This document shows, in pieces, positions 13,977 through 30,932 of a stretch of 64,000 nt of DNA. Source of the stretch: Novosphingobium olei (GTDB lineage Bacteria > Pseudomonadota > Alphaproteobacteria > Sphingomonadales > Sphingomonadaceae); contig NZ_JABBGM010000005.1 of assembly GCF_012927405.1 (NCBI RefSeq), positions 1 to 64,000 on the forward strand, read 5' to 3'. The notes below the pieces were generated by a model. That model was not told the DNA's origin and did not search any database. It saw nothing but the letters and a program-made list of their open reading frames with translations. Made by a program: the position numbers and the translations under genes. Each line of letters begins with the position of its first letter. The first letter of the stretch is position 1.

Positions 13977-14750
13977 GTGGAGAGGATCAGGATCGAGCGC
14001 GAGGAGCGGGTCACGTGGATCCGCCTGGCCCGGCCGGAGGTGCTGAACGCGATCGACGCGGACATGCATGACGAGCTGGAAGCCGCGTTCGATGCCTTTG
14101 CCGCTGATCCCGACCAGTGGATCTGCGTGGTGACCGGCGAAGGTCGCGCCTTCTGCGCCGGGTCCGATCTCAAGTCGGTGGTCGCGAACGGGCATCGCGA
14201 TTATCCGGCGCACGGCTATGCCGGGCTGATCGAGCGGTTCGACTGCGACAAGCCGATCATCGCCATGGTCAACGGGCTGGCGCTGGGCGGCGGGTTCGAG
14301 GTGGCGCTCGCCTGCGACCTGATCATCGCGGCGGAAAGCGCGAGCTTCGGCCTGCCCGAACCGCTGGTCGGCGCGGTGGCGCTGGGCGGCGGGGTCCATC
14401 GCCTGGCCCGCCAGATCGGCCTGAAAAAGGCGATGGGCATGATCCTGTCGGCCCGCCGCGTCAGCGCCGCGGAGGGCGAGCGGCTGGGCTTCGTCACCGA
14501 AGTGGTGCCTGACGACGAGCTGGAGACGGCGACACGCGCCTGGGTCAAGACGATCCTGAAGGGCGCGCCGCTATCGATCCGGGCATCGAAGCAGGCGGTG
14601 ATGCGCGGGCTGGACGAGCCCAGCCTGGAAGCGGCGATCGAGGGTCAAGAGGATTACCCCTCCTTCGCCGCGTGGCGCCGCAGCGAGGACGCGCGCGAAG
14701 GTGCGCTCGCCTTTGCCGAAAAGCGCGCCCCCGCGTGGAAGGGGCGCTGA
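13977..14750 (+). CDS. enoyl-CoA hydratase/isomerase family protein
   Basis: Crotonase-fold enzyme acting on acyl-CoA thioesters, of 257 residues. It has the oxyanion-hole segments GEGRAFCAGSDL and ALGGGFEVALACDLI, and the region FGLPEPLVGAVALGGG that usually holds catalytic acids. The GTG at 13977 follows AAGGAG at ideal distance. It has no beta-oxidation neighbours, so its substrate is open. The C-terminal region (PLSIRASKQAVMRG, then an EGQEDYPSF segment) resembles carnitinyl-CoA dehydratase-like members, but I would not go beyond the family. Confidence 0.9.
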   Translation: MERIRIEREERVTWIRLARPEVLNAIDADMHDELEAAFDAFAADPDQWICVVTGEGRAFCAGSDLKSVVANGHRDYPAHGYAGLIERFDCDKPIIAMVNGLALGGGFEVALACDLIIAAESASFGLPEPLVGAVALGGGVHRLARQIGLKKAMGMILSARRVSAAEGERLGFVTEVVPDDELETATRAWVKTILKGAPLSIRASKQAVMRGLDEPSLEAAIEGQEDYPSFAAWRRSEDAREGALAFAEKRAPAWKGR

Positions 14751-14761
14751 CTTATCGCTGA

Positions 14762-14802
14762 TCAGCGTCCGGGCTTTCAGCGTCCGGCCGTTCAGCGTCC
14801 GG
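14762..14802. repeat. three-unit 15-bp tandem repeat at the end of aroC
   Basis: TCAGCGTCCGG recurs at 14762, 14777 and 14792, a period of 15 bases. The last unit contains the aroC stop codon. Because 15 is a multiple of three, each unit places another TGA in frame, giving three successive stops. Confidence 0.8.
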
Positions 14803-15877
14803 TCTGGGCGCGGTGGAGCAGCTTCTGGTCGGCAAGGACCAGCGCCATCATCGCTTCGACCACGGGCACGCCGCGAATGCCGACGCAAGGATCGTGACGG
14901 CCCTTGGTGAACAGCTCGGTCGCCTCCCCTTCCCGCGTGATCGTGGGCATGGGGGTGAGGATCGAGCTGGTCGGCTTGAACGCCACGCGCACCACCACCG
15001 GCTGTCCGGTCGAAATGCCCCCGGCAATGCCGCCCGCGTGGTTGGCGAGGAAGCTGGGCCCATCATTACCGGGCCGCATCGGATCGGCATTGCCTTCGCC
15101 GGTGTTGCGCGCGGCTTCGAAGCCATCGCCGATCTCCACGCCCTTGACCGCATTGATGCCCATCATCGCGTGGGCGAGTTCGGCATCGAGCTTGGCATAG
15201 AGCGGCGCGCCCCAGCCGGCGGGCACGCCTTCGGCCACGCATTCGACCACCGCACCCAGCGACGAGCCGGACTTGCGCGCATCGTCGACCAGCTTTTCCC
15301 AGCGCGCCGCCGCCCACGAATCCGGGCAGAAGAACGGGTTGCGGCCGATTTCGGCTTCATCGAAGTGATCCATGTCGATCCGGTCGCCGCCGATCTCGCT
15401 GACCCAGGCGGTGATCTTCACTTCGGGAATCACGAGCCGCGCAACGCCGCCCGCCGCCACGCGCGCCGCCGTTTCACGCGCCGAGGAGCGCCCCCCGCCG
15501 CGGTAATCGCGAAAGCCGTACTTGGCGTCATAGGCATAGTCGGCGTGACCGGGGCGGTAGGCCTTGGCGACATCGCCATAGTCCTTCGAGCGCTGGTCGA
15601 CGTTCTCGATCATCAGGCTGATCGGCGTGCCGGTCGTGCGTTGGATTCCGTCTTGGCCCTCGAACACGCCCGAAAGGATCTTCACCTGATCGGGTTCCTG
15701 CCGCTGCGTGGTGAAGCGCGACTGGCCGGGGCGGCGGGCATCGAGGAAGGGCTGGATCACCGCTTCGGAAATCGGCAGGCCCGGCGGGCAGCCGTCGACG
15801 ACCGCGCCGAGCGCGGGGCCATGGCTTTCGCCCCAGGTGGTGAAGCGGAACACGTGTCCGAAGCTGTTCAGGCTCAT
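14792..15877 (-). CDS. aroC: chorismate synthase
   Basis: Converts 5-enolpyruvylshikimate-3-phosphate to chorismate with reduced FMN, the last common step to aromatic compounds. The 361-residue protein shows all three family signatures: [18 protein letters not shown] near the N-terminus, the [18 protein letters not shown] block near residue 130, and [16 protein letters not shown] in the C-terminal half. The ATG at 15877 starts the standard [11 protein letters not shown]; the longer frame upstream runs through a repeat element. That element begins only 57 bases upstream, so any promoter is squeezed or supplied by it. Confidence 0.97.
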
Positions 15878-15934
15878 GGAGCGCGGCTTTGTCGCAAGCG
15901 CGCGCAAAAGTCCATTGCCCGGCCGATCGCGGAC

Positions 15935-16202
15935 TAGGCGGCGTGGACAAATTCCACAGCGCCACGGCTGGAGGCAAAAAGCGCCAGCGAGAGGAGGCGA
16001 GGCGGAGCAATATCGGGAATATTGCGAGCCGAGCCGACGCTGCGATGGCGCTTTTTGGTCCAGCCCCAAAGGGGTTTCCCTGTAAAGGGTCCCTGCAGCG
16101 TCGCTCGGCCTTGATGGAGGCCCACTCCACCTGCGGCCTCGCTCCTTGCCGGGGCCCTTTACAGGGAAACCGTGGCGTTGCGGAGTTTGTCCACGCCGCC
16201 TA
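15935..16202 (+). mobile_element. 268-bp MITE-like palindromic element, copy A
   Basis: A 268-bp unit bounded by TA on each side, with terminal inverted repeats of about 31 nt (GGCGGCGTGGACAAATTCC... at the left, its near-complement at the right). Inside are two hairpin arms. One (about 15967-16065) has an 11-bp AAAAAGCGCCA stem and a smaller GCAATAT/ATATTGC hairpin. The other pairs 16073-16093 with 16151-16171 over 21 positions. A second copy of identical length lies at 24450, differing at about 16 positions. The TA flank fits IS630/Tc1-type insertion. There is no transposase gene, so it is non-autonomous. It sits between aroC and the next gene. Confidence 0.8.
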
Positions 16203-16215
16203 GGACAGGCAGCCC

Positions 16216-16525
16216 ATGTACCTCGTCGTCTTCCGCAACCGCAAGCGCGCCGACCTCGACGCCGCCGCCTATGCCGCCGATGCGCAGGCGATGGAGGACC
16301 TGGCCCGCGCGCAGCCCGGCTTTATCTCGTTCAAGAGCTACACGGCCGACGACGGCGAAGTGATCGCCGTCCGAATGGGCCGACGAGGCCGCCGCGCTTG
16401 GCTGGCGACGGCAGGCCGACCACGCCGCAGTCCAGGCCCGGGGCCGCGCCGAATACTACGAAAGCTATACCCTGTTCGCCGGGACTCCCGCGCGCCACCA
16501 CCACTTCGACAGGACCGAGCGATGA
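16216..16525 (+). pseudogene. antibiotic-biosynthesis-monooxygenase (ABM) domain protein, frameshifted
   Basis: The first 51 codons encode an ABM-fold start ([14 protein letters not shown], then [20 protein letters not shown]). At about 16369-16371 the homologous reading moves to another frame: SEWADEAAALGWRRQADHAA, ending YESYTLFAGT...HFDRTER and a stop at 16523-16525. Restoring two bases (GTCC to GTCTCC) would give one roughly 104-residue protein. The stop then overlaps the next ATG as ATGA, showing the original arrangement. As it stands, the upstream frame runs into the next gene and would yield a chimera. Sequencing error is possible. The 268-bp element ends 13 bases before the ATG. Confidence 0.75.
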
Positions 16526-16869
16526 GCGTTACCGTCTACGGCATTCCTAACTGTGACACCGTCAAGAAGGCGCGTGTCTGGCTCGAGAGCCAAGGCATCG
16601 CGTACACTTTCCACGACTACAAGAAGCAAGGCGCCGATCCCGCGCGCATCGCCGGCTGGATCGCGCAGGCGGGGCGCGAGAAGATCGTGAACAAGGCGGG
16701 GACGACTTACCGCAAGCTGGACGAGGCGCAGAAGGAGGCGCTGGCGGGCGATGGCGCGGCGGCGGTGCTGGCGGCCAACAGCTCGGTCATCAAGCGGCCG
16801 ATCGTCGAGCATGACGGCGGTCTTCTGGTGGGGTTCAAGCAGCCCGAGTGGGAAGCCGCGCTGGGCTGA
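16522..16869 (+). CDS. ArsC/YffB family reductase-like protein
   Basis: Thioredoxin-fold protein of 115 residues in the YffB branch of the arsenate reductase family. The N-terminus VTVYGIPNCDTVKKARVWL holds the single conserved cysteine. KAGTTYRKLDE and SSVIKRPIVEHDGGLLVGF follow the family pattern. YffB-type proteins are thought to be glutathione-dependent thiol reductases rather than true arsenate reductases, and there is no ars operon here. The ATG at 16522 overlaps the ancestral stop of the frameshifted gene upstream. Because of that frameshift the open frame is continuous with 16216. Confidence 0.85.
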   Translation: MSVTVYGIPNCDTVKKARVWLESQGIAYTFHDYKKQGADPARIAGWIAQAGREKIVNKAGTTYRKLDEAQKEALAGDGAAAVLAANSSVIKRPIVEHDGGLLVGFKQPEWEAALG

Positions 16870-16925
16870 GTCGGCGGGGCAAGGCGTTTACACCGCCTTA
16901 ACCATACCGCGCGATAAGTGCGGGC

Positions 16926-17924
16926 ATGCTTCAGGATCTTCAGGACTGGCGGGTCGAGGGGGCCCTCAATCCGTGGCGCAAGCCCGGGCGGGTCGGCCTT
17001 TCGGTAGTGATACCGTGCTATAACGAAGCGCCGGTAATCGATGCGCTGATGGCGCGCCTGATGCCGGTGTGCGAGGCGGCGAGCCCCGGCGACTACGAGA
17101 TCGTGCTGGTCAACGACGGGTCCAGCGATGCGACCTGGGCGCTGATCACGGCCCATGCGGCGCGTTCGGCGCACGTGGTGGGCGTGGACCTTGCGCGCAA
17201 CCACGGCCACCAGCTGGCGCTCACCTGCGGGCTTCAGGTCTGCCGCGGCGAGCGGGTGCTGGTGATCGACGCCGACCTGCAGGATCCGCCCGAACTGCTG
17301 CCCGAAATGATGCGGCTGGCCGATGAAGGCGCCGACGTGGTCTATGGCCAGCGCGTGGTGCGCGAAGGCGAAACCATGTTCAAGAAGGCGACGGCGGCGG
17401 CGTTCTACCGCGTGCTCGAAAGACTGATCGACATCGACATCCCGCGCGATGCCGGCGATTTCCGGCTGATGACGCGGCCGGTGGTCGATACGCTGAACGC
17501 CATGCCCGAACGCTTCCGCTTCGTGCGCGGCATGGTCGGCTGGGTCGGCTTCCGCCAGGTAGCCCTGCCCTACAAGCGCGATGCGCGCTTTGCCGGCGAG
17601 ACGCATTATCCCTTGCGCAAGATGCTGGCGCTGGCCTTCGATGCGGTGACCAGCTTTTCGGTCAAGCCGCTGCGCATTGCGTCGCTGTTCGGCGCGCTGG
17701 CAGGCCTTGCCGGCTTCGTCATGCTCGGTTGGGTGCTGAGCGTGTGGCTGACGAGCGGGACCGTTCATGGCTGGACCAGCATGATCGCGGTCGTGCTGAT
17801 CCTGGGCAGCGTGCAATTGCTCGTGCTCGGGGTGTTCGGCGAATACATCGGCCGCATGTACATCGAGACCAAGGGCCGCCCGATGTTCGTGGTGCGGCAG
17901 GTGTTCCGGGGCGATCAGGCATGA
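16926..17924 (+). CDS. family 2 glycosyltransferase, bactoprenol-glycosyl (GtrB/DPM) type
   Basis: Membrane-bound GT2 enzyme of 332 residues that loads a sugar from a nucleotide donor onto a polyprenyl phosphate carrier. The N-terminal GT-A domain has SVVIPCYNEAPVID, LVNDGSSDATW, the metal-site DADLQDPPELLPEM and a GDFRLM segment. Two C-terminal membrane helices (SLFGALAGLAGFVMLGWVLS and MIAVVLILGSVQLLVLGVF) end in GEYIGRMYIETKGRP, the GtrB-like signature. Its stop overlaps the next start (ATGA). With the GtrA-type fusion two genes on, it forms a plausible glycan-modification cassette. Confidence 0.92.
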   Translation: MLQDLQDWRVEGALNPWRKPGRVGLSVVIPCYNEAPVIDALMARLMPVCEAASPGDYEIVLVNDGSSDATWALITAHAARSAHVVGVDLARNHGHQLALTCGLQVCRGERVLVIDADLQDPPELLPEMMRLADEGADVVYGQRVVREGETMFKKATAAAFYRVLERLIDIDIPRDAGDFRLMTRPVVDTLNAMPERFRFVRGMVGWVGFRQVALPYKRDARFAGETHYPLRKMLALAFDAVTSFSVKPLRIASLFGALAGLAGFVMLGWVLSVWLTSGTVHGWTSMIAVVLILGSVQLLVLGVFGEYIGRMYIETKGRPMFVVRQVFRGDQA

Positions 17925-18625
17925 GCGCCTTGCCACCGCAGGCCGAATTCGACCTGCATTGCGACCGCTACCGCGCCGAGCACGCCGCATCGATCCGCGC
18001 GAGCGGCGAGGATGTGGACTTCTTCGCCGGCTACAAGGCGGCAGATGCCCTGCGGCTGGCCGAAACGGCGGGGCTTGCCGTGCGCGACATCCTCGATTTC
18101 GGATCGGGCGTGGGCAACGCGGTGGCACCGCTGCGCGAAGCTTTCCCGCACGCGAGGCTGACCTGCCTCGACGTTTCGGCGCGGTCGCTCGAGGCATCGC
18201 GCCGCAAGCATGGCGACGACAACGCCTATGTTCCCTACGACGGGCAGACGCTGCCGTTTGCGCCCGCTTCGTTCGACCTCGCGTTTGCGGCCTGCGTGTT
18301 CCATCACATTCCCCACGAGGACCATGTCGCGCTGCTGGCGCAGATCCGCGCGAGCCTGCGGCCCGGCGGTCTGTTCGTGCTGTATGAACACAATCCGTGG
18401 AACCCGCTGACCCGGCAGGCGGTGGCCAACTGTCCGTTCGACGAGAACGCGGTGCTGATTTCCGCGCCGGTGATGGCCGCACGGCTGCGCGCGGCGGGCT
18501 TTGCGCCCGTGACGCGCGAATACCGGATGTTCTTCCCCCGGGCGCTGGCCGCGCTGCGTCCGCTGGAGCGCTTCCTGAAGGCGCTTCCGCTGGGCGCGCA
18601 ATACGTGCTGGGCGGGTGCGCTTGA
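17921..18625 (+). CDS. class I SAM-dependent methyltransferase
   Basis: A 234-residue Rossmann-fold methyltransferase. Motif I is ILDFGSGVGNAVAPLRE, the acidic residue of motif II is in LTCLDVSARSLE, and FAACVFHHIPHEDHVALL with RPGGLFVLYEHNPWNP are typical post-I motifs. It starts inside the glycosyltransferase stop (ATGA) and its end overlaps the start of the GtrA fusion, so the three are translated as a unit. A role in methylating the sugar or lipid intermediate handled by its neighbours is an inference from context only. Confidence 0.85.
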   Translation: MSALPPQAEFDLHCDRYRAEHAASIRASGEDVDFFAGYKAADALRLAETAGLAVRDILDFGSGVGNAVAPLREAFPHARLTCLDVSARSLEASRRKHGDDNAYVPYDGQTLPFAPASFDLAFAACVFHHIPHEDHVALLAQIRASLRPGGLFVLYEHNPWNPLTRQAVANCPFDENAVLISAPVMAARLRAAGFAPVTREYRMFFPRALAALRPLERFLKALPLGAQYVLGGCA

Positions 18626-20550
18626 AGATCGTCGAGGCGATCCCCGCGCCCGCGCGTTTCGCCGGCGTGGGGCTGATCAACACCGCGCTGGGGCTTGCGC
18701 TGATCCAGATGGGCCTGCTGCTCGGCTGGAACGATTATGCCGCCAATGCCGCCGGCTATGCGGGCGGGTTCGTCTGTTCCTACCTGCTCAACCGCAGCTT
18801 CACCTTCGCCGCGAGCGAAGGACGACACGCGCGCCAGTTGCCGCGCTTCGCGCTTGCCGCCGGGGTTGCCTATGCGCTGAACATCGGCGTGCTGGCGATC
18901 GGGCGCAGCATCGGGATCGGCGGGACGCTGGCACTGCAGGCGGCGGCCGTGGCGATCTATACGGTGGCCTTCTACCTGCTTTCGCGGCGGTTTGTCTTCG
19001 CGGGCGGACCTTCCGCGACCGCCGACGCCTCCCGCTGGCATGCCCTGGTTGCGCGGACCACGCAAAGCCCTGCGCTGATCGCCCTGCTCGTCGCCGCCGC
19101 GATGGCGCCGCTCATGTTGGTGACGACGCCGCCGCTGGTCGATGCAGGCGGGCACATGGCGCGCTGGATCGTGCAGGTCGATGCGGGCGCATCGCCGGTG
19201 CTGCGCCAGTGGTACGACTTCAAGTGGGGGCTGCTCGGCAACCTTGGCTGCGACCTGCTGGCGCAAGGGCTGGTGCCGCTGCTGGGGCCGGAGGCGGCGC
19301 TGCGTGCGATCGTGGCGATCATCCTGGGTGTCCAGGCGCTCGGCATCCTGACCCTTTCGCGCACCGTGCATGGAAAAGTCGCGCCGACCGCATTCTTCGC
19401 GCTGCCCTTCATCTTCGGCTTTCCGCTGCAGTTCGGCTTTCTCAACTCGCTGCTGGGGATTGGCCTTGCGCTGAACGCCGTGGCGCTGTGGACCGCGCTC
19501 GAGATCAGGGGGCGCCATCGCCTGCAGGCGGCGCTGTTCGTGCCGATGGGCTTTGGGCTGTGGCTGGCCCACACGATGGGGCTGGCGGTGTTCCTGGTCG
19601 GTGCCTTCGCGGCGAACGCGGCGCGCGCCGATGCACGGGGCGAACCCGCCTGGCGCGTGGTGTTCGTATCGGGGCTGCGCCTGCTGCCCGCCGTGATCGG
19701 CCCGCTGATCGCCATGGGCATGGCCCGCCACGGACCGGTCGAGCCGTTCGCCTATCACCAGGGTGGCGGCAAGTGGCTCTGGCCCTTCGATGCGCTGCGC
19801 GACACGTGGCAGGCCTGGGACTTGGCCGCGCTGCTGATCGCCACCGTTGCCATCTACCTGTTCTGGCGCACGCCGTTTTTCGTGCGCGACCGCGGTATCG
19901 CGGTGTTCGCGGTGCTGATGGCGGTGATCTACGTGATCATGCCCGACACTATCCTCGAATCGCAGTATGCCGACATGCGGCTCGTGCCGGTGACCTTCGC
20001 GCTGTTCCTGATCGCGGCCGCGCCACGCGCCGACAGCCCGCCGGCGCTGCGCACCGTGCTGGCGATCGCAGGCCTGCTGTTCGTGGGGGCGCGCTGGACC
20101 GGCAATGCCGTGGCGATGGTCCACAACGACAGGATCGCCGGCCGCGCGCTTTCGGTGCTTTCGGCCGTGCCGCGCGGGACCAACCTGGTGACGATCGTGC
20201 CGCGCACCTGCGAGTCAGCGCAGACGCCGTGGAACATCGACCGGCGCGACCATATTTCCGGCTATGCGCTGGCACGCTGGCAGATCTTCGACAGCGCACA
20301 GTGGCAGATGAACGCGGGCCAGCTGTTGAAGGTGCACAATGCCGATGCGGAACCTTACGATCACGATCGCCAGACGATGATCTACGATCGCAGCTGCAAT
20401 GGCTGGCCGGGCGTGCACGACGTGCTGACCGAACTGAAGCCCGCCATCCGCTATGTCTGGGTGATCGGTATGCCGGCCGGACTGCAGCACGATGGCTGGA
20501 GCATCGCTGCCCGAGCGGGCGATTCGGTGGTACTGCACCGCATCCGCTGA
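18616..20550 (+). CDS. GtrA-like flippase domain fused to a polytopic GT-C-like membrane protein
   Basis: A 644-residue integral membrane protein. Residues 1-130 match the four-helix GtrA family (ARFAGVGLINTALGLALIQM, GGFVCSYLLNRSFTF, YLLSRRFVFAGG), which is proposed to flip polyprenyl-linked sugars. The remaining 500 residues form about ten more membrane segments and a C-terminal soluble part. An acidic site just after the first helix of this part (TTPPLVDAGGHMARW) resembles the loop where GT-C glycosyltransferases carry their catalytic Asp. I recognise no named family for it. The GTG at 18616 overlaps the methyltransferase end. GtrA and the final transferase are normally separate proteins, so the fusion is notable. 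Confidence 0.75.
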   Translation: MRLKIVEAIPAPARFAGVGLINTALGLALIQMGLLLGWNDYAANAAGYAGGFVCSYLLNRSFTFAASEGRHARQLPRFALAAGVAYALNIGVLAIGRSIGIGGTLALQAAAVAIYTVAFYLLSRRFVFAGGPSATADASRWHALVARTTQSPALIALLVAAAMAPLMLVTTPPLVDAGGHMARWIVQVDAGASPVLRQWYDFKWGLLGNLGCDLLAQGLVPLLGPEAALRAIVAIILGVQALGILTLSRTVHGKVAPTAFFALPFIFGFPLQFGFLNSLLGIGLALNAVALWTALEIRGRHRLQAALFVPMGFGLWLAHTMGLAVFLVGAFAANAARADARGEPAWRVVFVSGLRLLPAVIGPLIAMGMARHGPVEPFAYHQGGGKWLWPFDALRDTWQAWDLAALLIATVAIYLFWRTPFFVRDRGIAVFAVLMAVIYVIMPDTILESQYADMRLVPVTFALFLIAAAPRADSPPALRTVLAIAGLLFVGARWTGNAVAMVHNDRIAGRALSVLSAVPRGTNLVTIVPRTCESAQTPWNIDRRDHISGYALARWQIFDSAQWQMNAGQLLKVHNADAEPYDHDRQTMIYDRSCNGWPGVHDVLTELKPAIRYVWVIGMPAGLQHDGWSIAARAGDSVVLHRIR

Positions 20551-20606
20551 AAAGGGAGCCACCTGCCCCCTGTCGCACCGGGCCGAGGCATGCTATCTAC
20601 ACCAGT

Positions 20607-21011
20607 GTGAGCAACTCGACCCCCCATACCTTTGCCATTACCGTCGATCCGGCGGACATCGATTTCATGGGGCACGTCAACAACGCCTCATACCTCAAGT
20701 GGGTGCAGGACGCGGTGGTTGACCACTGGCGCGCCTTCGCGCCGGTGGAGGCGGTCAAACAGTACCTGTGGGTGGCGACGACGCATTCGATCACCTACCG
20801 TCGGCCGACATTCCTTGACGACACGGTGATCGCGCATGTGATCCTGGAGAAGGTCCAGGGTGCGCGCGCGTTCTACGAAACGGTGATCAAGCGCGGCGAG
20901 GACGTGCTGGCGGAGGTCAAGTCCAGCTGGTGCTGCCTTGACGCTTCAACCTTGCGCCCGGCGCGGCTGGCGCGCGAACTGGTCGAGAAATTCCTGCCTT
21001 CGCAGGATTGA
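20607..21011 (+). CDS. acyl-CoA thioesterase, 4HBT/YbgC-like hotdog fold
   Basis: Small hotdog-fold thioesterase of 134 residues. The sequence DPADIDFMGHVNNASYLKWVQDAV matches the 4-hydroxybenzoyl-CoA thioesterase group, with the catalytic Asp near residue 18 and the HVNN turn. ITYRRPTFLDDTVIAHV forms the central strands. The start is a GTG at 20607 giving VSNSTPHTFAITVDP; no strong ribosome site is seen, so the exact start is unsure. It may be a separate unit 56 bases after the membrane fusion gene. The acyl substrate is unknown. Confidence 0.85.
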   Translation: MSNSTPHTFAITVDPADIDFMGHVNNASYLKWVQDAVVDHWRAFAPVEAVKQYLWVATTHSITYRRPTFLDDTVIAHVILEKVQGARAFYETVIKRGEDVLAEVKSSWCCLDASTLRPARLARELVEKFLPSQD

Positions 21012-21027
21012 GTCGCCAGACCGGACT

Positions 21028-21207
21028 TTAGCGCAGCTTGGCGATAGAGAGGCCGTCGGCCTTGGCGCGTGTCTTGACCGATTCCTCGCTGCGGGTGAGC
21101 GCCTTGGCGATGGCTTTCAGCGCCATGCCCTTCTTGGCAAGCGTGTGCAGCTTCTGGATTTCATCGGCGGTCCAGGCCTGTTTGTGACGTTCGAAGCGTT
21201 CGGCCAT
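21028..21207 (-). CDS. 59-residue basic helical protein, possible DNA-binding
   Basis: A short open frame reads MAERFERHKQAWTADEIQKL and ends SIAKLR. It is highly charged, with a WTADEIQKL start and a following helix-turn-helix-like stretch (ALKAIAKALTRSEESVKTRA), which resembles SANT/Myb or GcrA-like small regulators. The ATG at 21207 is 4 bases past the ubiG stop, so it is the second gene of a ubiG operon. I would call it a conserved-looking hypothetical protein; the DNA-binding role is an inference from shape. Confidence 0.7.
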   Translation of the reverse strand: MAERFERHKQAWTADEIQKLHTLAKKGMALKAIAKALTRSEESVKTRAKADGLSIAKLR

Positions 21208-21211
21208 CGGT

Positions 21212-21937
21212 TCAGCCCTTCGTCGCGGTGACGATGAAGTTGAGCGACAGGTCGTCGGACAAGTGCAGGCCGCGCGCCGGGCCCCAGGCGATGCCCATCG
21301 GGTTGCCCATCCTGAGCCCCGCCTGTTCGAGCAGGGCGTGCAGTTCGACCGGGGTGACGAAATCGTCCCAGTGATGCGTGCCGCGCGGCACCATGCCCAT
21401 GCGCTCCGCCCCTTCGACCAGCAGCAGGCGCGAGGCCGTGGTGCGGTTGGGGGTGGACAGCACCATCAGGCCATCATCGGCCAGCGTTGCGGCAAGCGCG
21501 GCAAGGAAGGCCGCCTTGTCCGCCACGTGCTCGATCACTTCCATCGAAGTGACGAGGTCGAATCCCGAAAGACCCAAGCCGCCGATTTCACCGTGGCGGT
21601 AGTCGATGGCGAGGCCCGTGGCGGCGGCGTGTTCGCGCGCGACCGTGATGTTCTCCTCGGCCGCATCGACGCCGGTCACGGCACCGCCCAGCCGGGCCAG
21701 CGGTTCGGCCAGCAGCCCCGCCCCGCAGCCGACATCGAGCGCGCGCTTGCCGGCCAGCGGCTTCAGCGTGCGCGAATCGATGCCAAAGTGCGAATCGATC
21801 GCTTCACGCACGAAGCCGAGCCGAACCGGGTTAAGCCGATGAAGCATCGCCGAGGAGCCCTTCGGGTCCCACCAGTCGGCGGCGAGCTTGCCAAAGTGCG
21901 AGGCTTCGGCGGGGCGGATCGTGGTTGCATTGCGCAT
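21212..21937 (-). CDS. ubiG: bifunctional ubiquinone O-methyltransferase UbiG
   Basis: SAM-dependent enzyme making both O-methylations of ubiquinone. The 241-residue protein has the family start [20 protein letters not shown] (phosphate- and membrane-contact region), motif [20 protein letters not shown], the acidic [11 protein letters not shown], and [13 protein letters not shown] plus LSTPNRT. Length and order fit UbiG well. It is divergent from lysC across 81 bases and followed by a small basic protein. Confidence 0.95.
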
Positions 21938-22018
21938 GACCCATCCCTAAAGCGCCGCTCTCGCATGGTCCACCGGCCATGCACGAAAGATTGTTGCAGT
22001 AACCCTTGGGAGCGTGAC

Positions 22019-23275
22019 GTGGCCCGGATCGTGATGAAATTCGGCGGCACCTCGATGGCCGGAACCGAGCGCATCCGCCGTGTGGCCCGTATCGTCCAGC
22101 GCCAGCAGGCGGCCGGGCACGAGGTCGCGGTGGTCGTTTCGGCGATGGCTGGCGAGACCGACCGGCTGGTGAATTTCTGCCGCGAGGCGAGCGCGCTGTA
22201 CGATCCGGCCGAGTACGACGTGGTCGTCGCCGCCGGGGAGCAGGTAACCTCGGGCCTTCTTGCGATGCATCTGCAGGCGCTGGGGAGCAAGGCGCGTTCG
22301 TGGCTGGGCTGGCAACTGCCGGTGCGCACCGACGATGCCCATTCCAAGGCGCGCATCGAGGGCATCGATTCGGACGAACTGCTGGCCAGCATGGCGGCGG
22401 GCGAGATCGCGGTGATCCCGGGCTTCCAGGGCCTGACCGCAGACATTCGCGTCACCACGCTGGGCCGTGGCGGTTCGGACACTTCGGCGGTGGCGGTGGC
22501 GGCGGCGATCAAGGCCGATCGCTGCGATATCTATACCGACGTCGACGGGGTCTACACCACCGACCCGCGCATCGTGGCCAAGGCGCGCAAGCTCAAGAAC
22601 GTCACCTACGAGGAAATGCTCGAGCTTGCCTCGGTCGGCTCGAAGGTGCTGCAGACCCGCTCGGTCAGCCTCGCCATGAAGGAAAAGGTGCGCGTGCAGG
22701 TGCTGTCCTCGTTCATCGACGACGATGCCCCTGCTGCCGACACCATCCCCGGCACGATGATTGTTTCCGACGAGGAACTCGAAGGACTTGATATGGAACG
22801 CCAGCTGATCACCGGCATCGCAGCCGACAAGAACGAAGCCAAGGTCACCCTGACCCGCATCGCCGACCGTCCGGGCGCGGTTGCGTCGATCTTCGAGCCG
22901 CTGGCCGAAGCGAACATCAACGTCGACATGATCATCCAGAATATCGCCAAGGACAAGGGCGAGACTGACGTCACCTTCACCTGCCCGCAGTCGGACCTGG
23001 CGCGCACGCAGGCGCTGCTCGAGGAGCGCAAGGAGCAGATCGGCTTCTACCGGATGATCGCCGACAGCAAGGTGGCGAAGGTTTCGGTCGTCGGCGTGGG
23101 CATGCGCAGCCACGCGGGCGTTGCCAGCACGATGTTCAAGAGCCTGGCCGACCGGGGCATCAACATCCAGGCGATCAGCACCAGCGAGATCAAGGTTTCC
23201 GTCCTGATCGACGCCGACGAGGTCGAACTGGCGGTGCGCGTGCTGCACACCGCCTATGGGCTCGACGCCGCCTGA
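22019..23275 (+). CDS. lysC: aspartate kinase
   Basis: Phosphorylates aspartate, the first step to lysine, threonine and methionine. The 418-residue monofunctional enzyme begins [15 protein letters not shown], the ATP-binding signature. It has [16 protein letters not shown] and the Asp-rich [13 protein letters not shown] in the kinase domain. Two ACT domains after about residue 265 ([18 protein letters not shown] and [17 protein letters not shown]) mediate feedback control. The GTG at 22019 follows TTGGGAGCGTGAC; the frame upstream overlaps ubiG and is spurious. Confidence 0.96.
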
Positions 23276-23354
23276 CAAGCCCTGCGACTTGCCGGACAGG
23301 CCCGCGACGCCTAAGGGCGCGGGCCAAGTTGCAACGGACGGACGGCAAGACGCG

Positions 23355-24365
23355 ATGACCAGCACCCCCAAGACTTCCGCGCTGATGGCGCGTGGCGCGG
23401 AATTCCTCGGCACCGAATATGCGGTGCTGTGCGGGGCGATGAGCTGGGTGTCCGAGCGCAACCTCGTCGCCGCGATCAGCAATGCGGGCGGTTTCGGCGT
23501 GATCGCTTGCGGGGCGATGACGCCTGAGCTGCTCGACAAGGAGATCGCCGGGACCAAGGCGCTGACGGCCAAGCCGTTCGGCGTCAACCTGATCACCATG
23601 CACCCGGCACTGTTCGACCTGATCGCGGTCTGCGCGCGCCACAAGGTCGGCCACGTGGTCCTTGCCGGCGGTATCCCGCCCAAGGGCAGCGTCGAGGCGA
23701 TCAAGGCGTTCGGCGCCAAGGTCATCGTGTTCGCGCCAACGATCGCGCTCGCCAAGAAGCTGTTCCGTTCGGGCGCCGACGCGCTGGTGATCGAAGGCAG
23801 CGAAGCGGGTGGGCACATCGGCCCGGTCTCGACCTCGGTGCTGGCCCAGGAATTCCTGCCGGCCCTCGCCGCCGACCACCTGGTATTCGTGGCCGGTGGC
23901 ATCGGCCGGGGAGAAGCGATCGCGAGCTATCTGGAAATGGGCGCGGCGGGCGTCCAGCTCGGCACGCGGTTTGCCTGCGCAAGCGAATCCATCGCGCATC
24001 CTGCGTTCAAGCAGGCCTTCTTCCGCGCCAATGCGCGCGACGCGGTGGCCAGCGTGCAGATCGACCCGCGCCTGCCGGTGATCCCGGTGCGCGCGTTGAA
24101 GAACAAGGGCACCGAGGAGTTCACCGCCAAGCAGCGCGAAGTGGCGCAGGCGCTTGACGAAGGGCGCGTCGACATGGCGGCGGCCCAGCTCGAGATCGAG
24201 CACTTCTGGGCGGGCGCGCTGCGCCGCGCGGTGATCGACGGCGATGTCGAGAGCGGATCGGTGATGGCCGGGCAATCGGTGGGCATGGTCACGCAGGAAC
24301 AGCCGGTGGCCGAAATCATGGCACAGTTGCTGGCCGAAAGCGAAGCGGCGCTCACCCGGAGCTGA
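23355..24365 (+). CDS. NAD(P)H-dependent flavin oxidoreductase (nitronate monooxygenase-like)
   Basis: FMN-binding TIM-barrel enzyme of the nitronate monooxygenase / FabK-like group, 336 residues. It shows AAISNAGGFGVIACGAM near the N-terminus, the FMN phosphate loop and catalytic region DALVIEGSEAGGHIGP, and VFVAGGIGRGEAIASYLEMG then GVQLGTRFACASES. ATG 23355 gives MTSTPKTSALMARG. Members act on nitronates or enoyl-thioesters and related substrates; sequence does not tell which. It follows lysC by 79 bases. The second 268-bp element begins 84 bases after its stop. Confidence 0.88.
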   Translation: MTSTPKTSALMARGAEFLGTEYAVLCGAMSWVSERNLVAAISNAGGFGVIACGAMTPELLDKEIAGTKALTAKPFGVNLITMHPALFDLIAVCARHKVGHVVLAGGIPPKGSVEAIKAFGAKVIVFAPTIALAKKLFRSGADALVIEGSEAGGHIGPVSTSVLAQEFLPALAADHLVFVAGGIGRGEAIASYLEMGAAGVQLGTRFACASESIAHPAFKQAFFRANARDAVASVQIDPRLPVIPVRALKNKGTEEFTAKQREVAQALDEGRVDMAAAQLEIEHFWAGALRRAVIDGDVESGSVMAGQSVGMVTQEQPVAEIMAQLLAESEAALTRS

Positions 24366-24449
24366 CGCCGGTGCCGGCTTGACCGGCCCGGGCGGCAGCT
24401 GGCGTAACGCTGCTTGAACGAGGCGCTGGCGGCGCGCGAATTCGTGCTC

Positions 24450-24717
24450 TAGGCGGCGTGGACAAATTCCGCAGCGCCACGGCTGGAGGCAAAAAGCGCC
24501 AGCGCGAGGAGGCGAGGTGGAGCAATATCGGGAATATTGCGAGCCGAGCCGACGCTGCGATGGCGCTTTTTGGTCCAGCCCCAAAGAGGTTGCCCTGTAA
24601 GAGGCCCCTGCGGCCTCGCTCAGCCTTGATGGAGGCCAACTCCACCTGCGGCCTCGCTCCTTGCCGGGGCCTCTTACAGGGTAACCGTGGCGTTGCGGAA
24701 TTTGTCCACGCCGCCTA
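24450..24717 (+). mobile_element. 268-bp MITE-like palindromic element, copy B
   Basis: Same orientation and exact length as copy A, about 94% identical by eye. It is bounded by TA, and the outer sequence GCTC-TA ... TA-GAGC suggests insertion at a palindromic GCTCTAGAGC. The terminal inverted repeats pair over about 31 nt with one G-T pair. The internal arm pairs 24588-24608 with 24666-24686 over 21 positions. Several differences from copy A occur on both sides of this stem so that pairing is preserved. Its right end is 40 bases before the MFS start codon. Confidence 0.8.
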
Positions 24718-24757
24718 GAGCGCGGGGGACAACCCCAGCCCCGGAAAGATCACACCC

Positions 24758-25999
24758 GTGCAGCACCGCGCCTCGATCGGCTTCGTCTTTGCCATCGTGC
24801 TGATCGACATGCTGGGCTTCGGCATCGTGATCCCGGTGCTGCCCGGACTGATCATGCATCTGGCGCACGTGCCGATTGCCACGGCAGCGGAATACGCTGG
24901 CTGGCTTGGCGCTGGCTATGCGGCGATGCAGTTCGTGTTCGCGCCGATCATCGGCAACCTGTCCGACCGGTTCGGGCGGCGCCCGGTGCTGCTCGCCTCG
25001 ATCCTGGCGCTCGGCTGCGACTACCTGATCCAGGCGCTGGCGCCGAGCATGAGCTGGCTGGTGCTGGGCCGGATCATCGCCGGGATTACCGGTGCAAGCT
25101 TTTCGGCCGCCTATGCTTACATTGCCGACGTCACCACGCCCGAAAAGCGCGCGGCAAGCTTTGGCATGATGGGCATGGCGTTTGGCATCGGCTTCGTCGT
25201 CGGGCCCGCCATCGGCGGCATCCTTGGAGCGATGAACCCGCGCTATCCCTTCGCCTTCGCCGGTGCGATGGCGCTGGCCAACTTCGTTTTCGGGCTGGTG
25301 TTCCTGCGGGAATCGCTGCCGGCGGACAAGCGCCGCCCGTTCGACTGGCGCAAGGCGAATGCGCTCGCCTCGCTACAAGCCCTGCGCGCGCAGAGCGGCG
25401 CGGTGCTGTGGTTCGTGGCTGCGCTGGGCGTGTGGCAACTGGCGCACATCGTCTACCCTTCGACCTGGTCGTACATGGCGATTGCGGCCTATGGCTTTTC
25501 GACGAAGCAGGTCGGCTTCGCCCTGGCAGTGGTCGGTTTTTCGAGCGCGCTGGTCCAGGGCTTCGGCCTGCGCCTGCTGCTGCCCCGCCTGGGCGAGCGC
25601 AGGGCGGTGGCACTGGGCATCGCGGGGCTGTGTGTTGCCGCTGTGCTTTACGCCGTTGCGCACCAACCCTGGCAGGTGTGGGTGGCGATCGTTGCGGGCG
25701 CGGCACAAGGCTTCGTCCAGCCGTCGATCTCGGGCCTCAACAGCCGGGCGGTCGACGCGCGCAGCCAGGGCGAATTGCAGGGCGCGGTGCAGTCGATCGG
25801 TTCGATCGCGGCGATCGTGGGGCCGGTGCTCTATACCCAGGCGCTGGCGCGGTTCAGCGGACCGGGCGCGATCGCGCAGATCCCGGCCATGCCGATGCTG
25901 ATATCGGCCGCCATCTCGCTGGTGGCGCTGGGCCTGTTCCTGAAGGGCGCCGGACTGCTGGCGCGCGAGGATCAGCTTTCCAGCTCGACGTCCCAGTAG
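24758..25999 (+). CDS. MFS transporter, TetA-like drug/H+ antiporter type
   Basis: A 413-residue, 12-helix major facilitator. The N-terminus has DMLGFGIVIPVLPGL and the loop 2-3 signature GNLSDRFGRRPVLLAS. Helix 5 holds the antiporter motif GFVVGPAIGGILG. These are typical of the TetA/DHA1 subgroup, so it probably exports drugs or metabolites. The GTG at 24758 has GGAAAG about 10 bases upstream. Its last 28 bases overlap the end of the convergent HNH gene. No TetR regulator is adjacent, and the substrate is unknown. Confidence 0.9.
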   Translation: MQHRASIGFVFAIVLIDMLGFGIVIPVLPGLIMHLAHVPIATAAEYAGWLGAGYAAMQFVFAPIIGNLSDRFGRRPVLLASILALGCDYLIQALAPSMSWLVLGRIIAGITGASFSAAYAYIADVTTPEKRAASFGMMGMAFGIGFVVGPAIGGILGAMNPRYPFAFAGAMALANFVFGLVFLRESLPADKRRPFDWRKANALASLQALRAQSGAVLWFVAALGVWQLAHIVYPSTWSYMAIAAYGFSTKQVGFALAVVGFSSALVQGFGLRLLLPRLGERRAVALGIAGLCVAAVLYAVAHQPWQVWVAIVAGAAQGFVQPSISGLNSRAVDARSQGELQGAVQSIGSIAAIVGPVLYTQALARFSGPGAIAQIPAMPMLISAAISLVALGLFLKGAGLLAREDQLSSSTSQ

Positions 26000-26607
26000 A
26001 GCCAGTCGCGCCAGCTTTCATGCAGGTGGCCGGGCGGGAAGGCGCGGCCCCGTTCCTGCAACTGCCACGTCGTCGGCCGGATCGGTTCCTCGAACAGGTG
26101 CATGTGCGCCTGCGCCGGGGTGCGGCCGCCCTTCTTGAGATTGCACGGCGCGCAGGCGGTGGTGACGTTCTCCCAGGTGGTGCGCCCACCAAGGCGGCGC
26201 GGCACGACATGGTCGAACGTCAGCAGGTCGGTGCTGCCGCAGTACTGGCACGAAAACTTGTCGCGCAGGAACAGGTTGAAGCGGGTGAAGGCGGGAAACT
26301 CGTTCGGCCGCACGTATTGGCGCAGCGCGATGACCGAGGGGATCTTCATGTCCAGCGACGGGCTGTGCACCGCCTGGTCGTAAGTCGCGATGATGTCGAC
26401 CCGTTCGAGGAACACTGCCTTGATCGCCGTCTGCCAGGGCCACAAGCTCAACGGATAATAGCTGAGCGGGGTGTAGTCGGCATTGAGGACAAGCGCCGGG
26501 CAATCATCGAGATGGCGCGAATTCCGGCCCGAAAACAGGTGGGCGGCGGCATCGCCGCTGTGGGGCCTGGCCGCAGCCGCCCGCTCGATCAGCGCCTTAT
26601 GAAGCAT
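25972..26607 (-). CDS. HNH endonuclease family protein
   Basis: A 211-residue protein with an N-terminal domain (LVLNADYTPLSYYPLSLWPW) typical of the small chromosomal HNH proteins of proteobacteria. The HNH core is FSCQYCGSTDLLTFDHVVPR, then LGGRTTWENVTTACAPCNLKK, with two CxxC zinc pairs, the catalytic His and Asn. This type is widespread as a single gene, not as part of a restriction or toxin unit, and its role is not established. GGAG sits only one base before the ATG, so the start could be a little downstream. Confidence 0.88.
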   Translation of the reverse strand: MLHKALIERAAAARPHSGDAAAHLFSGRNSRHLDDCPALVLNADYTPLSYYPLSLWPWQTAIKAVFLERVDIIATYDQAVHSPSLDMKIPSVIALRQYVRPNEFPAFTRFNLFLRDKFSCQYCGSTDLLTFDHVVPRRLGGRTTWENVTTACAPCNLKKGGRTPAQAHMHLFEEPIRPTTWQLQERGRAFPPGHLHESWRDWLYWDVELES

Positions 26608-26736
26608 GCTCCGGTTCGGCCCTTACGCATCGCCAATTGCCTCCTGACGGGGGAGGAAATGGGGACCTTGCGTGACCGCTTCGTGACGCATGCGATGGAA
26701 GGAACACGCTTGGCGCCCTTTCGTCAAGCGTGGTGA

Positions 26737-30932
<4,196 letters not shown>

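What the first reader, a model, noticed from the sequence alone, without database searches (positions are those of the whole stretch)
24450..24717. Compensatory changes in the hairpin arm between the two elements
In copy A the arm 16073-16093 pairs with 16151-16171 (AAAGGG/CCCTTT core). In copy B the same arm is 24588-24608 with 24666-24686 (AAGAGG/CCTCTT core). Both sides changed together at two positions, and a third pair keeps G-T pairing, so a 21-bp stem is kept. With the outer terminal stem and the AAAAAGCGCCA arm, the element folds as a three-way junction. Selection on structure suggests a function as RNA or DNA fold: transposase recognition, a small RNA, or transcript processing.
Basis: seen in the sequence. 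Interest (0 to 1): 0.72.

Follow-up and report, generated by a model that had tools for sequence, protein, structure and literature searches.

The report
Hairpin-rich mini-transposon in Novosphingobium
The two look-alike stretches are copies of a short DNA parasite that folds into hairpins; its matching hairpin changes are real, but they look at least partly like one arm being copied from the other during DNA copying, rather than proof of a working RNA.

Summary
Copies A (15935-16202) and B (24450-24717) belong to a 268-bp family with 8 full copies in this genome, matches in 44 of 195 genomes of the genus and full copies in a few other genera. It folds end to end as a three-way junction. On 33 copies, 42 of 76 pairs change on both sides (0 of 500 shuffles; slid controls at most 16).

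It is a MITE: its outer 19 bp match the ends of IS427-type IS5-family elements of the genus, sites are YTAR, and copy A's interval is empty in 13 of 13 aligned relatives. In 33 elements the TA end rebuilds a gene's stop codon.

Covariation is not proof of RNA function here. Three copies have the arm-2 loop inverted between intact arms. Arm 2 shows no G-U preference and clustered double changes. This is the footprint of template switching.

Against a purely mutational reading: loop orientation is otherwise constant, recent ortholog pairs show no double changes, old pairs are less diverged than their flanks, and a weak orientation bias exists.

The parts
24450..24717 (+). MITE copy B, 268 bp including the terminal TA on each side
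   Evidence: query; one of 8 full copies in own genome; TIR pair
24450..24482 (+). left terminal inverted repeat of copy B (outer 19 bp TAGGCGGCGTGGACAAATT shared with IS5-family elements)
24685..24717 (-). right terminal inverted repeat of copy B
24483..24578 (+). arm 1 (AAAAAGCGCCA arm): stem 24483-24486 + 24490-24500 with 24562-24572 + 24575-24578, tip between
   Evidence: helices 2-4
   Evidence: helix 5: 18 of 22 pairs change on both sides
24611..24663 (+). arm 2 apical loop, the part found inverted in three other copies
24664..24685 (+). arm 2, 3' side of the stem
15935..16202 (+). MITE copy A, 94% identical to B; orthologous interval lacks it in 13 of 13 aligned relatives (21 loci tried)
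16074..16095 (+). copy A arm 2, 5' side
16149..16170 (+). copy A arm 2, 3' side
15935..15967 (+). copy A left terminal inverted repeat
16170..16202 (-). copy A right terminal inverted repeat

Best explanation
Copies A and B are non-autonomous mobile elements (a MITE family) of Novosphingobium and some relatives. Shown: the outer 19 bp match the ends of IS427-type IS5-family insertion sequences in the same genus; sites are YTAR, mostly CTAG, with TA at both ends; and in about two in five elements a gene's reading frame ends exactly on the TAG made by TA plus the element's first G. Inferred: that IS5-type transposase moves them in trans. Between the ends the element folds as a three-way junction whose arms covary strongly. 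Most likely (inferred) the arms, arm 2 above all, are kept complementary in good part by template switching between the two arms during replication: one arm is copied onto the other. This gives paired changes without two independent mutations, sometimes inverts the loop, and perhaps sometimes deletes the arm. Selection against mispaired or loop-inverted copies in the lineages that go on spreading probably acts on top of this. A specific RNA function is not needed to explain the data.
For: MITE: 8 full copies plus fragments in the own genome; 44 of 195 genus genomes, own included, match at E 0.001, some only at an end; 82 of 99 TIR-bounded sequences are 264-271 bp. Ends TA/TA at 69 of 81 sites, base before TA C 65 / T 14, base after G 67 / A 13. 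Empty orthologous interval for copy A in 13 of 13 aligned loci of 21 tried. Partner: of 30 loci with the transposase ORF in genus genomes, 15 are bounded on both sides by the same outer 19 bp with 0-2 mismatches, mostly 1160-1337 bp apart. The plasmid relatives carry a two-ORF transposase, PF13340 in ORF 1 and PF13586/PF01609 in ORF 2; the one in S. paucimobilis is annotated 'IS5 family transposase'. Stop codons: of 35 element ends into which a coding frame runs (166 ends examined), 34 are in phase 0 and end on TAG, 17 left and 17 right, on 33 elements; among noncoding-or-stop YTAR sites 33 of 283 are at stops (p 7e-9 for 34 of 81). Template switching: loop inversions in L206 (267 of 268 identical to L084 after re-inversion), L266 (267 of 267 identical to L255) and the decayed L271. 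Arm 2 on the tree of 80 copies: 69 double WC-to-WC changes (16 terminal, 53 internal); single breaks to G-T 10 terminal / 4 internal, to A-C 12 / 4, other 11 / 7; adjacent double changes on one branch 13 against 6.1 (p 0.006); 4.77 changes per site against 4.67 at 15 sites between the helices, 3.1-3.3 in the tips and 1.68 in the outer TIR. Orthologous loci L262/L267 and L078/L097: 268-bp form in one genome, 165-180 bp form without arm 2 in the other. The same footprint, arm homogenization plus spacer or loop inversion, is described in PMC8604942 and PMC8794818 (passages).
Against: In seven recent ortholog pairs all 11 changes at paired sites are one-sided and none double, so arm copying is not fast. 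In two older pairs the element is less diverged than its flanks (L033/L198: 22 of 268 against 82 of 400; L002/L038: 45 of 268 against 117 of 342), which constraint, or exchange between copies, would give. Over the four main helices changes from Watson-Crick to G-T on internal branches outnumber those to A-C 15 to 7, and a T-G pair in arm 1 persists in 11 of 33 copies, as RNA-level tolerance would give. The loop keeps one orientation in 80 of the 82 full-length copies; the two inverted ones are very young and L271 is decayed, so inverted loops seem not to spread, which suggests the loop matters (inverted copies also score lower and may have been missed where few candidates were scored). Genes beside the element run more often with its + strand than against it (79 to 52, p 0.023). 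The 15 comparison sites are few and not all unpaired. The cognate transposase was not found in this genome's assembly (best 43% identity). No exact TSD was seen at an empty site of a near-identical strain.
Confidence: 0.65

Rival explanations
1. A structured RNA under selection: the element carries a transcribed three-way-junction RNA (small RNA, or mRNA stabiliser or processing site like ERIC or NEMIS), and the covariation is compensatory evolution of that RNA.
For: Strong covariation in the helices, including small apical helices 4 and 6; one loop orientation in 80 of 82 full-length copies; T-G pair persisting in arm 1 (11 of 33); weak co-orientation with neighbouring genes (79 to 52); old ortholog pairs less diverged than flanks.
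Against: No G-U preference in arm 2 (G-T 10/4, A-C 12/4 terminal/internal); both strands fold with similar z-scores; equal use of both orientations at stop codons (17 to 17); in seven recent ortholog pairs the element changes about as fast as its flanks (18 of 1873 against 31 of 2799); no Rfam family.
Confidence: 0.2
2. DNA-level selection: hairpins extruded as cruciforms or on single strands help the element to transpose or avoid loss, so mispaired copies do not spread.
For: In arm 2 one-sided breaks sit mostly on terminal branches (33 against 15 internal) while double changes sit mostly on internal branches (53 against 16): mispaired copies rarely leave descendants. No strand preference in arm 2.
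Against: Does not by itself predict loop inversions or clustered double changes; IS5-family transposases are not known to need internal hairpins (recalled, from no call); shorter forms of 155-180 bp exist, two of them shown to lack arm 2, though whether they move is unknown.
Confidence: 0.25
3. Ordinary decaying repeat; arm identity is chance plus recent common origin.
For: Copies do change in place by one-sided changes.
Against: 0 of 500 shuffles and none of six slid controls approach the observed covariation; arm 2 is among the fastest-changing parts yet stays paired.
Confidence: 0.01

Closest known systems
Palindromic bacterial MITEs: ERIC/IRU, Correia/NEMIS, RUP (PMC2229807, passages)
   Same: Short, mobile, many copies, TA at the termini, RNA that would fold as a long stem; for NEMIS and ERIC effects on mRNA are reported there.
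   Different: 268 bp with three helices at a junction; IS5-family TIR; different host group; no transcript data.
CIR repeats of Caulobacter/Brucella (PMC2229807, passages)
   Same: Alphaproteobacterial repeat with two long arms.
   Different: CIR arms are described as joined by a linker and the repeat as lacking TIRs and carrying GANTC; here the ends pair and are TIRs.
IS427 group of the IS5 family (PMC3281130, passages; IS5 target in PMC5493358, passages)
   Same: Outer ends as in the elements; two-ORF transposase; 2-bp repeats in most listed members; PyTAPu target with CTAG commonest (reported for IS5).
   Different: The 268-bp element has no transposase and shares only about the outer 19-20 bp; IS5 itself is reported to duplicate four bases; partner copies here also carry a 290-430 bp passenger segment.
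Template-switch mutations at inverted repeats (PMC8604942, PMC8794818, passages)
   Same: Arm homogenization, multiple neighbouring compensatory changes, loop or spacer inversion.
   Different: There yeast coding genes and RNA genes with inverted loops of a few bases; here a mobile hairpin with about 53-nt loops inverted.

Membership tests
MITE | short, no transposase gene, many copies | tested here: met
   268 bp; 8 full copies in own genome; 82 of 99 TIR-bounded sequences 264-271 bp
MITE | TIRs matching an autonomous IS | tested here: met
   outer 19 bp as in IS5-family elements of other genomes; no close transposase found in own genome
MITE | target-site duplication | tested here: inconclusive
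   TA at both ends in 69 of 81 sites; empty intervals shown but in diverged relatives
MITE | transposition in trans by that IS | not testable with these tools
   needs a mobility assay
IS427 group (for the partner element) | DDE transposase of IS4/5 type in two overlapping ORFs, 2-bp repeats | tested here: met
   PF13340 and PF13586/PF01609; two overlapping ORFs; TA ends; group features from PMC3281130
ERIC / NEMIS / CIR | sequence homology to those families | not tested
   no direct comparison made; similarity is of kind only
structured non-coding RNA | covarying helices | tested here: met
   but the same is expected from template switching
structured non-coding RNA | strand-specific (G-U tolerant) conservation in the main covarying stem | tested here: not met
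   arm 2: changes to G-T 10/4, to A-C 12/4 (terminal/internal)
structured non-coding RNA | member of a described family | tested here: not met
   no Rfam match at gathering score in 14000-27000; two sub-threshold miRNA hits on copy B
structured non-coding RNA | expressed as RNA | not testable with these tools
   no RNA-seq

The most novel reading that the evidence does not exclude
A mobile element family whose textbook-strength RNA-like covariation is made mainly by the replication machinery copying one hairpin arm onto the other, caught in the act through loop inversions and with no RNA function: a natural system showing that significant covariation alone can mislead non-coding RNA discovery. 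In addition, the element's TAG ends let it settle in stop codons of either strand without changing the protein.
Probability: 0.4. Interest if true: 0.68.

Novelty: new member of a known kind. Interest (0 to 1): 0.5.

Why it matters
Compensatory changes are widely treated as strong evidence for a functional RNA stem. Here a repeat family passes that test strongly, yet loop inversions, clustered double changes and missing G-U preference in its main stem point to a mutational source. With many copies per genome and sister species sharing loci, it is a good place to measure template switching against selection. The stop-codon siting shows how an element with a YTAR target can spread in gene-dense genomes at little cost.

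Tried and rejected
IS630-type (Tc1/mariner) parent, suggested by the TA ends: PF13358 has 7 matches in the own genome, and scanning five of those loci (L140-L144) for the TIR found it only as the truncated MITE copy lying beside one of them (L143), so it was set aside in favour of the IS5-family elements found by TIR search. A 4-bp YTAR duplication: rejected, because the base before the left TA varies (C or T) while the base before the right TA is the element's own C. Arm-to-arm tertiary pairing (arm 1 purine run with arm 2 pyrimidine run): looked at by eye only; the 70 pairs listed show no such run. Strand-specific siting: 17 to 17 at stop codons, a weak bias overall, left open. A first, cruder gene call gave a stronger left bias (33 to 9); it was replaced (40 to 21). 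Short forms as the ancestral element: two orthologous pairs look like deletions of arm 2; the others were not resolved. Literature: in the held PMC library, searches found no paper, and the titles and abstract starts listed (20 of 1,126; 3; 15 of 22; 12 of 41) do not describe this repeat; nothing wider is claimed.

Rows dropped before counts: the truncated copy L009 from the 58-copy set; one misplaced duplicate (L200_318), six irregular rows and all copies of 95% or more identity from the 33-copy set (73 copies before); the two inverted copies and all lengths outside 264-271 bp from the 80-copy set. Of 16 ortholog rows seven recent pairs enter the element-versus-flank sum; the other nine (older, deleted, short, repeated or self) do not, and one search shows four of them. 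Gene calls are from my own codon score, not a standard gene finder. One search used 34 of 81, although the 34 ends lie on 33 elements and one search examined 166 ends. Only 3 candidates per genome were scored and 2, so copy numbers there are lower bounds. L271 is not among the 82 full-length copies, because its TIRs are too worn.

Full report
WHAT IS THERE. Copy A (15935-16202) and copy B (24450-24717) are 94% identical. The own genome holds 8 full copies, a truncated one and a few lone ends. Both copies fold end to end as a three-way junction with z-scores of about -13 to -14; copy B does so on either strand and with RNA or DNA parameters.

SPREAD. Within the genus 44 of 195 genomes, own included, match at E 0.001, some only at an end (three candidates scored per genome). 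In the family sample 7 of 397, own included, match at E 1e-12, four of them in other genera: three at full length, one over 102 bases. A pattern for the right end gave 36 stretches in named genomes, among them Novosphingobium indicum, capsulatum, pokkalii, clariflavum, colocasiae and subterraneum, Sphingomonas sp. IC081, Aurantiacibacter sp. D1-12, Stakelama flava and several metagenome-assembled genomes; not each was checked for a full element. All 5 plasmid records with a match belong to Novosphingobium, none covering 80% of the element. Of 99 distinct TIR-bounded sequences collected, 82 are 264-271 bp long.

HOW IT MOVES. Both ends read TA-GGCGGCGTGGACAAATT, with small variations. At 81 sites the ends are TA/TA in 69, the base before is C in 65 and T in 14, the base after is G in 67 and A in 13: a YTAR target with CTAG preferred. 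For IS5 the target is given as Py-T-A-Pu with CTAG commonest (PMC5493358, passages). Copy A's interval lacks the element in all 13 relatives that could be aligned, of 21 loci tried. The same outer 19 bp bound elements of mostly 1.1-1.3 kb with an IS4/5-type transposase, in Sphingomonas and Rhizobium plasmids and at 15 of 30 transposase loci examined in genus genomes. Two overlapping ORFs and 2-bp repeats are features of the IS427 group of IS5 (PMC3281130, passages). The own assembly holds no close copy of that transposase, so trans-mobilisation is an inference.

STOP CODONS. At 35 of 166 element ends a coding frame runs up to the element; in 34 it is in phase with TAG (17 left ends, 17 right ends, 33 elements). 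Among YTAR sites at stops or outside coding sequence in 345 kb, 33 of 283 are at stops. TA from the target plus the first G of the element makes TAG in either orientation, so insertion in a TAG or TAA stop keeps the protein. Whether this is target choice or survival of harmless insertions cannot be told here. Copies A and B themselves lie between predicted genes.

COVARIATION. On 33 copies below 95% identity, 96.6% of cells pair (shuffles 86.0; slid controls at most 44.3), 42 of 76 pairs change on both sides (shuffles 22.1; slid at most 16), score 0.298 against 0.101 (slid at most 0.063), 0 of 500 shuffles. The slid controls keep the relatedness of the sequences. Without assuming a structure, the 14 top mutual-information pairs of 80 copies are helix pairs; ranks below are mixed.

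WHY COVARIATION IS NOT ENOUGH. (1) Loop inversion: L206 and L266 carry the arm-2 loop reversed between intact arms; turning it back gives 267 of 268 and 267 of 267 identity with normal copies at other loci. They are 2 of the 82 full-length copies. A third, decayed copy outside that set, L271, is inverted too. (2) On the tree of 80 copies arm 2 has 69 double Watson-Crick changes, clustered on neighbouring pairs (13 against 6.1, p 0.006), with G-T and A-C breaks about equal (10 and 12 terminal, 4 and 4 internal). (3) Arm 2 changes at 4.77 per site, like 15 sites between the helices (4.67; few, and six of them lie in a small hairpin), faster than the tips (3.1-3.3), the arm 1 base (2.0) and the outer TIR (1.68) (all). 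If one arm is copied onto the other, the expected pair-change rate is about the single-site rate, whereas two-step compensation through harmful intermediates should be slower (inference). (4) At two orthologous loci one genome has the full form and the other a form without arm 2. Arm homogenization, multiple neighbouring compensatory changes and loop inversion are the described footprint of template switching (PMC8604942, PMC8794818, passages).

WHAT SPEAKS FOR SELECTION. One-sided breaks in arm 2 lie mostly on terminal branches (33 against 15 internal), double changes mostly on internal ones (16 against 53): mispaired copies seldom leave descendants, although slow correction by copying would look similar. 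Inverted loops occur only in two very young copies and one decayed copy; inverted copies score lower, so some may have been missed. A T-G pair persists at one arm-1 position in 11 of 33 copies, and over the four main helices changes to G-T outnumber those to A-C on internal branches 15 to 7. Genes beside the element run with its + strand more than against (79 to 52, p 0.023). In seven recent ortholog pairs the element differs at 18 of 1873 sites and the flanks at 31 of 2799, with 11 one-sided and no double changes at paired sites: resident copies are not visibly constrained over that time, and arm copying is not quick. In two older pairs double changes appear (3 in L033/L198, 13 in L002/L038) and the element is less diverged than its flanks (22 of 268 against 82 of 400; 45 of 268 against 117 of 342), which constraint, or exchange between copies of one genome, could explain.

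VERDICT. A new family of palindromic MITE, of the kind of ERIC and NEMIS but of IS427/IS5 type. The fold and its paired changes are real. The step to RNA function is not supported; a DNA-level origin of the paired changes, by template switching with some selection on spreading copies, is the best reading. No Rfam family matches.

Noticed in passing
L147, L148, L149, L153-L159, L161-L164, L167: The partner IS5-family elements share an ~810-830 bp transposase module (about 81-89% identical to L154's) but carry about ten unrelated kinds of 290-430 bp segment between it and the far TIR, with a different longest ORF of 78-113 aa in each kind. Of 9 such ORFs tested, 8 had no Pfam match at E 0.01 and one a weak zinc-ribbon match. 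It looks like an IS with exchangeable small cargo genes.
   Followed up: partly
L262/L267 and L078/L097: Orthologous loci where one genome has the 268-bp form and the other a 165-180 bp form lacking arm 2, most simply a deletion of the hairpin in place.
   Followed up: yes
L002 and L038/L078: Apparently the same intergenic site occupied in distantly related genomes (left flanks 72-73% identical), yet L002 is 96% identical to copy B: ancient shared insertion homogenised between copies, or repeated insertion at one site.
   Followed up: partly
L002, L004, L007 left ends: Three own-genome copies have CAGGCGG instead of CTAGGCGG at the left end only, as if the T of the left TA were lost; the right end is normal.
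   Followed up: partly
window, CTAG sites: CTAG occurs 15 times against 52.6 expected from trinucleotides, and four of these are the ends of the two MITE copies.
   Followed up: no
L264, apparently the same 375-bp element as L225:546-920: Composite copy in which part of the element, from the arm 1 tip to the arm 2 loop, is repeated in tandem, suggesting recombination or slippage between copies.
   Followed up: no
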